Program-made: the position numbers and the translations under genes
Assembly (NCBI RefSeq): GCF_030408815.1
Contig: NZ_CP047355.1
Coordinates: forward strand, 1,240,001-1,304,000
Source: Corynebacterium freiburgense
GTDB lineage: Bacteria; Actinomycetota; Actinomycetes; Mycobacteriales; Mycobacteriaceae
Length of the DNA: 64,000 bases
Reading direction: 5' to 3'
Part shown: piece after piece, positions 4,817 to 53,838 of the stretch
Position numbering within the stretch: position 1 is the stretch's first letter
Layout: each line of letters opens with the position of its first letter
The notes under the pieces: model-generated
Told to the model about the DNA's origin: nothing
Seen by the model: only the letters and a program-made list of their open reading frames with translations
The model's database searches: none

Positions 4817-5379
4817 GGCTGGTGGTTTGGTTGTGTGCTTGTGGTGAGCTGGGATTTGGTTGGGAGGTGCTTGGTCTGGTTGGCTGCTGGCCAGGAGGTG
4901 TTCAGTCTTTTTGGCCACCGGCCGGTCTTTTCTGGCGCTGGTTGGGCGTGTTGTCACAGATTCCATTTTCGGCCGATTTTATGGAATCTGCGACACGATA
5001 GGTAGGGAACCTGTCACGAATTCCATTTTTTTCGCTGTTTTTATGGAATCTGCGACAAACCCCAGGTCAACGATTGTGCGCAATGTTGGTTGCTGTCACA
5101 AATTCCATTTTTTCAGGCGATTTTATGGAATCTATGACAGTAAGGATGAAAGTATATCTAGTTTAATAGGGTCAACCTATCAAACACCCAGGAAACTAGC
5201 TCAATCCTCTGAAAAAGCGTCCGATGCACTGGAAAACCAACTCAAGAACCCCAAAAACCAACGACCAGCCAACCCACCCCCAAAAACCAGCGACGACCAG
5301 CCAACCCACCCCCAAAACCCAGCACCGCACTTCTAGCATTATGGAACAAAAGATCAGCCTAAATTTCGGGGGCAAATTC
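4817..5379 (+). repeat. dispersed hairpin repeat, copy 1 (three hairpins)
   Basis: Layout: a T/G-rich left flank starting GGCTGGTGGTTTGGTTGTGT; three imperfect hairpins at 4952-4995, 5012-5057 and 5094-5139, each with arms of the type TGTCACAGATTCCAT and ATGGAATCTGCGACA; linkers CGATAGGTAGGGAACC (16 bp) and a 36-bp linker containing CCCAGGTCAACG; a small hairpin AATAGG-GTCAA-CCTATC at 5165-5181; an A/C-rich right flank in which CGACCAGCCAACCCACCCCC occurs twice; and a tail beginning ATGGAACAAAAGATCAGCCT at 5341. The flanks are partly complementary to one another (GCTGGTTGG against CCAACCAGC-like words). The same ordered parts recur at 12533 and 53401. No protein is likely: frames through it only translate the repeat. 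Confidence 0.85.
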
Positions 5380-5621
5380 ATGTTTGTTCTTGGTAATGTG
5401 TGCCTGTGGATACTACGCACGGTTCAATCTTGGTTCCAAGGTGGTCACAGTGAGGTAATTCCTGGTGATCCGTTCGAGCAGGCTCGGGAGTTGCTGTATT
5501 TATGCGATGGTGTTTGGCCAGCAATGTTTCTGCAGCTAATTCGTACACACTGACAAGAAAGTGCTGATACTTACACTAAATCCATGCATGTGGGGCGAAT
5601 CACCATGTATGGTTTGCGAAT
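5380..5621. other. spacer with one doubtful short reading frame
   Basis: Between the repeat tail and the next gene. A 57-codon frame (ATG 5380 to stop 5551-5553, beginning MFVLGNVCLW) has no ribosome binding site and no known relatives that I recognise. TATGGT at 5608-5613, 8 nt before the ATG at 5622, may be the -10 box of the downstream gene. Confidence 0.35.
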
Positions 5622-12532: not shown

Positions 12533-13030
12533 GGCCGGTAGTTTGGTTGCGTACGTCTGGTGAACTGGGATTTGGTTGGAGCTGGTCGGTCTTTTGGGCG
12601 CTGGTTGGTCTTTTTGGGCTGCTGGTTGGGGGTTGTTTGGGGGTTTCATGGGCGGGTTGTCACAGATTCCATTTTTTCGGCTGTTTTTATGGAATTTGTG
12701 ACACGATAGGTAGGGATCCTGTCACAGATTCCACCAGAACAGGCCTGTTTTATGGAATCTGTGACAAATCCCAGGTCAACGGTTGTGTACAACATTAGCT
12801 GTTGTCACAAATCCCACTGGAACGGGCTTGTTTTATGGAATCTGTGACATTCGGCATGTAAACATCGCTTGTTTGATAGGGCGGGCCTATCAAACGCCTA
12901 GGAAAGTAGCCCACACCCCAGGAAAGCGGAGACGGCTAGACCTTCCACGCGGGAAAGGCGGCCTGCGGATCCTGAAACCAGCGCAAAATCTCGGAAAACC
13001 AGCCATCCCACCCGGAAAACCAGCCCATGC
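12533..13030 (+). repeat. dispersed hairpin repeat, copy 2 (three hairpins)
   Basis: Same ordered parts as the copy at 4817. The left flank starts GGCCGGTAGTTTGGTTGCGT. Hairpins lie at 12658-12703, 12720-12766 and 12803-12849; the linkers are CGATAGGTAGGGATCC and a 36-bp linker starting AATCCCAGGTCAACGG. The small hairpin TTTGATAGG-GCGGG-CCTATCAAA is at 12872-12894. The right flank repeats GGAAAACCAGCC. Loops of hairpins 2 and 3 differ (AACAGGCCTGTT against AACGGGCTTGTT) yet keep pairing. The right boundary is uncertain; a diverged tail may reach about 13120. The 13030-13130 remainder shows no gene. Confidence 0.83.
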
Positions 13031-53282: not shown

Positions 53283-53400
53283 GCGTATTTAGAGGTGGAG
53301 AAGCTGCTTTGTGGTTTGGTCAGGCCGCTTTGTGGTTTGGCGAAGCTGAACTTGCTTTTAGTTGTTCGAATGTACTGTACGGGGGCTTTGGAGCAGTTGT

Positions 53401-53838
53401 GGCTGGTAGTTTGGTTGTGTGCTTCTGTTGACCTGGGATTTGGTTAGGGCTGGGTGGGCTCTGGTCGGTCTTTTCAGACGCTGGTTGGGCGTGTTGTCAC
53501 AGATTCCATTTTTTCGGCGGATTTTATGGAATCTGCGACACTCGGCATATAAACATCACTAGTTCGATAGGGTGTGCCTATTAAACACCCGGGAAAGCGG
53601 CTTGAAGGCTCGGGAAACCAGCCGACCCACTCCAAAAACTCTGGGAAACCAGCCGGCCCACCCGTCAAACCCGGACACCTTCTGCCCACGTGCTTAAAAA
53701 TGACTCCACTAACCTGGAGCATGGGTCCTACCGCTGGGAAAATAGACAACGATCAGCTACATCAGGTGCATGCAAATCGACCTGATCACCAAACACTATG
53801 GAAAAAAGACCAGCCTGACTTTCGGGGCAGGCTCAACC
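53401..53838 (+). repeat. dispersed hairpin repeat, copy 3 (single hairpin)
   Basis: Same parts as the copies at 4817 and 12533, but with one hairpin (53495-53540) instead of three. Left flank GGCTGGTAGTTTGGTTGTGT; after the hairpin the linker CTCGGCATATAAACATCAC matches the segment after hairpin 3 of copy 2 (TTCGGCATGTAAACATCGC). Small hairpin near 53564-53586 (GATAGG-GTGTG-CCTATT). Right flank repeats GGGAAACCAGCCG. The tail ATGGAAAAAAGACCAGCCTG at 53798 matches the tail of copy 1. Recombination between hairpins 1 and 3 would give this form. It lies between the rpsA terminator and a DUF4253 gene. Confidence 0.85.

What the first reader, a model, noticed from the sequence alone, without database searches (positions are those of the whole stretch)
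4817..5379. Unrecognised multi-part structured repeat family, three copies in 64 kb
Copies at 4817-5379, 12533-13030 and 53401-53838 share the same ordered parts: T/G-rich flank, one or three hairpins of about 46 bp, fixed linkers, a small hairpin with a 5-nt loop, an A/C-rich flank and (copies 1 and 3) a tail starting ATGGAA. All three point the same way and lie between genes. I know of no named corynebacterial element with this layout. It could be a non-autonomous mobile element, a structured RNA gene, or a chromosome-organisation signal.
Basis: seen in the sequence. Interest (0 to 1): 0.85.

Follow-up and report, generated by a model that had tools for sequence, protein, structure and literature searches.

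The report
Transposon-ended repeats carrying binding-site arrays
A Corynebacterium chromosome carries about 80 copies of a non-coding element that ends like a common jumping gene and holds an array of paired 15-base sites that look like protein-binding sites, which makes it an unusual new repeat family.

Summary
The three copies belong to a family with 79 confirmed copies in this chromosome and two older-type loci. Of 242 Corynebacterium genomes only one other has the array; a named scan found it in MAG Corynebacterium sp. S17M_Sa_7.

The "hairpins" are dyads of a near-invariant 15-bp half-site, TGTCrCArATTCCAT, around a variable spacer. The arms keep their sequence but show no compensatory pairing (500 of 500 shuffles pair at least as well), so a structured RNA is unlikely and paired protein-binding sites fit better. 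The binder is inferred.

In this species the array sits between IS3/IS150-type ends, matching those of IS3 elements at 24 of 26 and 26 of 28 positions. 38 of 79 copies keep a recognisable end. No close transposase remains. The orthologous intervals of all three window copies in the second species lack the array.

Best reading: an orphan, non-autonomous IS3-type element that dispersed an array of operator-like dyads, whose arms stay intact while the transposon ends decay. What the array does is open.

The parts
4952..4995 (.). copy 1, dyad 1 (inverted half-sites TGTCrCArATTCCAT, 14-bp spacer)
4996..5011 (+). copy 1, linker 1 (16 bp, nearly invariant across copies)
5012..5057 (.). copy 1, dyad 2
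5058..5093 (+). copy 1, linker 2 (36 bp)
5094..5139 (.). copy 1, dyad 3
5161..5185 (+). copy 1, small hairpin with 5-nt loop (GTTTAATAGG-GTCAA-CCTATCAAAC)
5353..5380 (+). copy 1, right IS3/IS150-type end; last base of the element 5380
   Evidence: E 6e-10
12658..12703 (.). copy 2, dyad 1
12720..12766 (.). copy 2, dyad 2
12803..12849 (.). copy 2, dyad 3
   Evidence: right arm; left arm has 2 changes
12871..12895 (+). copy 2, small hairpin
53347..53372 (+). copy 3, degenerate left IS3/IS150-type end (weak)
   Evidence: E 1.4, inner part of the profile only
53495..53540 (.). copy 3, its single dyad
53562..53586 (+). copy 3, small hairpin
53808..53835 (+). copy 3, right IS3/IS150-type end; last base of the element 53835
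   Evidence: E 4e-11

Best explanation
Each copy is (the remains of) a non-autonomous transposable element of about 0.5-1 kb. Its ends are those of an IS3-family, IS150-group insertion sequence; its non-coding interior carries one to three dyads (ancestrally probably four) of the half-site TGTCrCArATTCCAT. Shown: the ends, the copy number, the lack of a close transposase in this genome, and array-free orthologous intervals for all three window copies. Inferred: an IS3-type transposase, now missing from this strain, copied it in trans. The array is probably the older part: the second species has it without IS3-type ends, in a symmetric 82-61-82 layout. Inferred, and most likely: pairs of half-sites are bound by a sequence-specific DNA-binding protein on one face of the helix, and selection keeps them after the transposon ends have decayed.
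For: Ends: 16 left and 29 right ends align; pairwise identity is 0.70/0.56 inside and 0.24/0.26 outside; the two consensus ends match 19 of 26, reached by 0 of 100,000 shuffles. The same ends bound IS3 elements on Corynebacterium and Arthrobacter plasmids and ISArsp13 of the IS3/IS150 group as printed in PMC6305408 (passages). No close transposase: rve family 2 hits, best protein match 32% over 141 aa. All three window copies lack the array in the orthologous intervals of G210. Arms: in 43 canonical cores per-site diversity is 0.000, 0.018 and 0.007 in the arms (13 of 15 positions), 0.081-0.103 in the spacers between them; all 79 small-hairpin-defined copies keep the last dyad. No compensatory pairing. 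Spacer lengths fall at 14-18 and 25-28 bp here, and at 15-17, 27 and 38 bp in S17M, about one helical turn apart.
Against: No binding protein is known and none was sought. Each dyad folds stably as RNA (z -5.4 to -6.9). Target duplications are weak: 4 of 10 copies, shuffled mean 1.5, p 0.02, with 3 or 4 bp allowed after looking. 41 of 79 copies show no recognisable end, and junctions could not be resolved to the base. The 11-bp steps in spacer length could come from slippage between T-tracts. If another transposase reads the dyads, arm conservation needs no host function.
Confidence: 0.58

Rival explanations
1. REPIN-like selfish dyads: the inverted pairs are recognition sites of a Y1/RAYT-type or other transposase, and the arms are conserved because only recognised dyads spread; there is no host function.
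For: An inverted doublet with conserved arms, variable spacer and tandem clusters is the REPIN layout (PMC3116915, abstract and passages). The second species has arrays without IS3-type ends.
Against: The arm is not palindromic in itself, as REP sequences are. Half-sites outside the core are rare: 1 of 423 in the 79 loci. Fixed 62/82-bp array spacing is not expected of single mobile dyads. A RAYT gene was not looked for.
Confidence: 0.2
2. A structured RNA gene or cis-acting RNA.
For: Dyads fold stably. On the element strand A.C mismatches (270) far exceed G.T (34) in the three dyads, which would be G.U pairs in an antisense RNA. Real arm register pairs far better (90.8%) than slid registers (19-45%).
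Against: Cells paired and covariation do not exceed shuffles; the small hairpin shows no excess either (494 against 491.7 of 550). The mismatch excess rests on positions 5 and 8 shared by descent and is equal (86 and 86) in S17M. No Rfam match to the element; no orientation preference toward genes.
Confidence: 0.06
3. Bidirectional transcription terminator or insulator.
For: Intergenic inverted repeats, about a third between convergent genes (27 of 78).
Against: The window's own gaps give a similar mix (6 convergent of 21); the terminator scan of copy 1 finds 1 site against 1.9 in shuffles, and not at a dyad.
Confidence: 0.06
4. Neutral palindromic repeats kept alike by gene conversion between copies.
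For: In the few intervals where both species have an array, each carries its own species' type, as concerted evolution would give.
Against: Conversion should homogenise the 16-bp spacers between the arms as well, yet they differ several-fold more.
Confidence: 0.08

Closest known systems
IS3 family, IS150 group (ISArsp13; IS3 elements on NZ_CP067011.1 and NZ_CP073099.1)
   Same: Both ends match: left 24 of 26, right 26 of 28 (C. kefirresidentii), 23 of 26 left for the Arthrobacter element.
   Different: No transposase gene; non-coding interior with dyad array; no close IS3 transposase in the genome.
BOX elements of Streptococcus pneumoniae
   Same: Intergenic, high-copy, modular, with a variable number of central units and outer modules; transposon-like ends proposed (PMC3049150, passages).
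   Different: Different layout of central units (dyads at fixed 62/82-bp spacing here); sequences were not compared directly.
REPINs (REP doublets forming hairpins)
   Same: Inverted doublet with conserved arms and variable spacer, many copies, tandem clusters (PMC3116915, abstract and passages).
   Different: Arm is not palindromic; arrays of one to four dyads in fixed register; IS3-type outer ends in one species; RAYT not tested.

Membership tests
Non-autonomous IS3/IS150-group element (MITE-like) | terminal inverted repeats of the IS3/IS150 type | tested here: met
   19 of 26 between own ends; 24/26 and 26/28 to plasmid IS3 elements; 38 of 79 copies have at least one end, 11 both
Non-autonomous IS3/IS150-group element (MITE-like) | 3-4 bp target duplication | tested here: inconclusive
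   4 of 10 copies, p 0.02 by shuffling flanks
Non-autonomous IS3/IS150-group element (MITE-like) | no transposase gene inside | tested here: met
   a simple ORF caller puts no ORF over the core in 77 of 79 loci; L027 and L075 have one; rve family found at only two places in the genome
Non-autonomous IS3/IS150-group element (MITE-like) | autonomous partner with matching ends in the same genome | tested here: not met
   left-end pattern (up to 3 mismatches) matches 8 places, each at an already mapped element; no close transposase. A partner may have been lost or be in other strains
Non-autonomous IS3/IS150-group element (MITE-like) | absent from orthologous sites in a relative | tested here: met
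   3 of 3 window copies: intervals in G210 without half-sites at up to 3 mismatches; exact junctions not resolved
BOX element | boxA/boxB/boxC sequence homology | not tested
   no direct comparison was made; resemblance is of layout only
REPIN | inverted doublet with conserved arms and variable spacer | tested here: met
REPIN | each arm is itself a palindromic REP sequence | tested here: not met
   TGTCrCArATTCCAT has no internal palindrome (read from the sequence)
REPIN | RAYT (Y1 transposase) in the genome | not tested
Structured RNA family | compensatory base changes in the stems | tested here: not met
   all 500 shuffles reach the observed paired percentage and covariation score
Structured RNA family | match to an Rfam family | tested here: not met
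   none over the elements in the window or in 7 further loci

The most novel reading that the evidence does not exclude
About 80 chromosome-wide compound binding platforms (up to six half-sites each, on one helical face) for an unknown nucleoid or regulatory protein, present in two Corynebacterium species and dispersed in one of them by a since-lost IS3 transposase: a mobile element whose cargo is a protein-binding array, kept by selection after the transposon ends decayed.
Probability: 0.3. Interest if true: 0.8.

Novelty: new variant of a known kind. Interest (0 to 1): 0.55.

Why it matters
IS-derived non-autonomous repeats are common. Here the interior half-sites are far better conserved than the ends needed for transposition, while the spacers between them vary. 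That points to something that reads the half-sites at hundreds of places on one chromosome, in only two of 242 searched genomes of the genus.

Tried and rejected
One-direction reading: the + list suggested that copies all point one way; one search showed both strands. Antisense-RNA reading: the A.C excess rests on two positions shared by descent and is absent in S17M. Terminators and promoters: no signal at copy 1. Plasmids and phages by blastn and viral contigs by exact pattern: no match to the core; left end in viral contigs: none. Exact empty-site junctions: spacers too diverged. Position sharing: by my reading of coordinates 5 of 36 S17M loci have the array in the same interval as an own element; L094/L057 have arrays on opposite sides of one conserved segment. 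Only stretches around own elements, two rve loci and the window were compared there. An early note of mine called more pairs orthologous (L103/L014 among them); coordinates did not bear that out. Searches for a printed description found none: (open-licence PMC papers; listings only). Rows dropped by hand: 16 antisense duplicates among the 97 matches; 251395 (fetched, no dyad) and 537961 (not fetched) among the 81 places.

Full report
OBSERVATION. The three copies were read directly. The half-site TGTCRCARATTCCAT with up to one mismatch occurs 13 times in the window, always inside the copies, against 0.01 expected. Rfam finds only tRNAs in the window.

GENOME-WIDE FAMILY. The small-hairpin pattern gives 97 matches in the own genome; after removing 16 antisense duplicates by hand, 81 places remain. 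I fetched 80; 79 hold at least one dyad, one does not; one was not fetched. Of the 79, 42 lie on + and 37 on -. Two further loci have dyads without a small-hairpin match and resemble the second species' type (L119, L120). A strict dyad pattern matches 171 times, its reversed control 0 times. Dyads per element: three in 64, two in 7, one in 8. The commonest spacing between dyad starts is 62 and 82 bp.

DISTRIBUTION. An exact 13-base arm pattern is absent from 40 of 40 relatives, 24 of them of the same genus. A covariance model finds the array in 2 of 242 genus genomes, own and G210 (run with stricter filters that lose weak matches). A named scan of the genome collection found the dyad only in MAG Corynebacterium sp. 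S17M_Sa_7, 36 stretches (the window's own genome may be left out there). G210 and that MAG share array coordinates, so I take them as one assembly (inference). No match in viral contigs by exact pattern or in plasmids and phages by blastn.

THE SECOND SPECIES. The 36 S17M loci hold 121 dyads by my scan, typically at 82, 61 and 82 bp, in some loci repeated after about 236 bp. The 36-bp linkers on the two sides of the centre are inverted copies of each other, so the array is symmetric as a whole (read). No IS3-type end at up to 6 mismatches in the 36 S17M loci and 3 G210 stretches, reversed control 0; the same scan finds one in 27 of 79 own loci.

SEQUENCE, NOT PAIRING. In a gap-free alignment of 32 two-dyad units (13 own and 19 S17M, chosen by me among 58 and 35 distinct units of canonical length; 9 S17M pairs whose linker direction the script could not tell were set aside), 90.8% of cells pair; shuffles average 91.8% and 500 of 500 reach the observed value; the covariation score is 0.027 against 0.040, again 500 of 500. 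Slid registers pair 19-45%, as expected of inverted repeats. Positions 5 and 8 are purines that vary without compensation. In the 43 of 79 elements whose first arm lies at the canonical place, per-site diversity is 0.000, 0.018 and 0.007 in the arms (13 of 15 positions), 0.138-0.147 at positions 5 and 8, 0.081-0.103 in the spacers, 0.003 in linker 1, 0.116 in linker 2 and 0.148 in the small hairpin. With positions 5 and 8 included the arms (about 0.02-0.035, my arithmetic) are still below the spacers. Copies were found through the small hairpin, so arms were not the basis of discovery; all 79 keep the last dyad at up to 4 changes per arm. The small hairpin itself shows no pairing excess (494 of 550 cells against 491.7, 78 of 500 shuffles as high). 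Against this reading, each dyad alone folds stably. Spacer lengths are 14-18 (209) and 25-28 (8) in own, 15-17 (118), 27 (3) and 38 (1) in S17M: steps of about one helical turn, or slippage between T-tracts.

ENDS. Profile searches place 16 left and 29 right ends precisely; identity falls from 0.70/0.56 inside to 0.24/0.26 outside and the consensus ends match 19 of 26. The left end against plasmids gives 14 records at E 0.05 to 7, weak on its own: 3 Corynebacterium, 5 Arthrobacter, 6 others. I opened four. H3 (C. tuberculostearicum) and H6 (Arthrobacter) have annotated IS3 transposases just inside the matching left end; H1 (C. kefirresidentii) has two ORFs, unannotated in PLSDB, between both ends, which I take as its transposase genes by position and layout; H2 shows the left end without an annotated transposase or a right end. 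The Arthrobacter protein is IS3 family (NF033516, 312 bits) and its element has AACT on both sides. Against the element's consensus, left ends match 24 of 26 (23 for Arthrobacter) and right ends 26 of 28 (C. kefirresidentii), 25 of 28 (C. tuberculostearicum) and 21 of 26 compared (Arthrobacter). PMC6305408 (passages) prints ends of the same kind for ISArsp13, IS3/IS150 group, with a 3-bp duplication. Own target duplications: 4 of 10, shuffled mean 1.5, p 0.02. In the own genome the rve family hits twice and an intact transposase of this type reaches at best 32% over 141 aa.

EMPTY INTERVALS. Between flanking homologous blocks the interval of copy 1 is 1110 bp here and 297 bp in G210, of copy 2 1007 and 309 bp; of copy 3 2596 and 1210 bp (E limit 1e-25, at which the right-hand neighbour gene finds no match either). 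The fetched G210 intervals hold no half-site at up to 3 mismatches. G210 is an 88%-complete MAG. In the other direction, 5 of 36 S17M loci have the array in the same interval as an own element by my reading.

CONTEXT. With a home-made ORF caller, the 78 loci with both neighbours give 27 convergent, 35 tandem and 16 divergent; the window's 21 gaps of 60 bp or more give 6, 10 and 5. In 77 of 79 no called ORF overlaps the core. Strand by chromosome half (81 places): 17 + and 21 -, 25 + and 18 -; origin and terminus were not located.

MECHANISM. Shown: IS3-type ends on 38 of 79 copies, copy number, no close partner, array-free intervals, conserved half-sites without compensatory pairing. Inferred: copying in trans by a lost or foreign IS3 transposase, capture of an older array, and a protein that binds the half-sites. 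The argument for something beyond IS3 mobility is that the ends IS3 transposition needs have decayed while the arms have not. The main alternative is a second selfish agent that reads the dyads, REPIN-like; I did not test for its transposase.

LITERATURE. BOX (PMC3049150, passages) and REPIN (PMC3116915, abstract and passages) are the closest layouts. Of the strings searched, neither arm occurs in the library and the left-end string occurs in one paper, PMC6305408.

Noticed in passing
L071:138-570 (-), chromosome 2,474,444-2,474,876: A GOLLD RNA (RF02032, 173 bits against a gathering score of 150) lies in this chromosome, within 2 kb of one element.
   Followed up: no
L033:2687-2875 (+): A cobalamin riboswitch (RF00174) lies a few hundred bases beyond the end of one element.
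   Followed up: no
L119 (own) and L108 (S17M MAG): Nearly 2 kb beside the older-type array are 98.5% identical between the species, while other shared loci are about 69-88%: recent transfer, or a stray contig in the MAG.
   Followed up: partly
right flank of many own copies, e.g. L014, L033, L063: An optional second module runs from GGCAGATyTsACA to ACAAATCTGCC: both borders in 38 of 79 copies, the first only in 12, neither in 29. Function unknown.
   Followed up: partly
window 4996-5011 and 5161-5185: Linker 1 (diversity 0.003) contains GATAGG, which recurs in the small hairpin: perhaps a second recognition motif.
   Followed up: no
S17M flanks, e.g. L112, L098, L086: The outer flanks of S17M arrays carry another palindrome-like module around AAGCTT with CGGCGTCG / CGACGCCG arms.
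   Followed up: no
L057 (own) and L094 (S17M): Arrays stand on opposite sides of one conserved segment of about 410 bp in the two species, which suggests independent insertions; I recall the segment as looking like RNase P RNA, not checked.
   Followed up: partly
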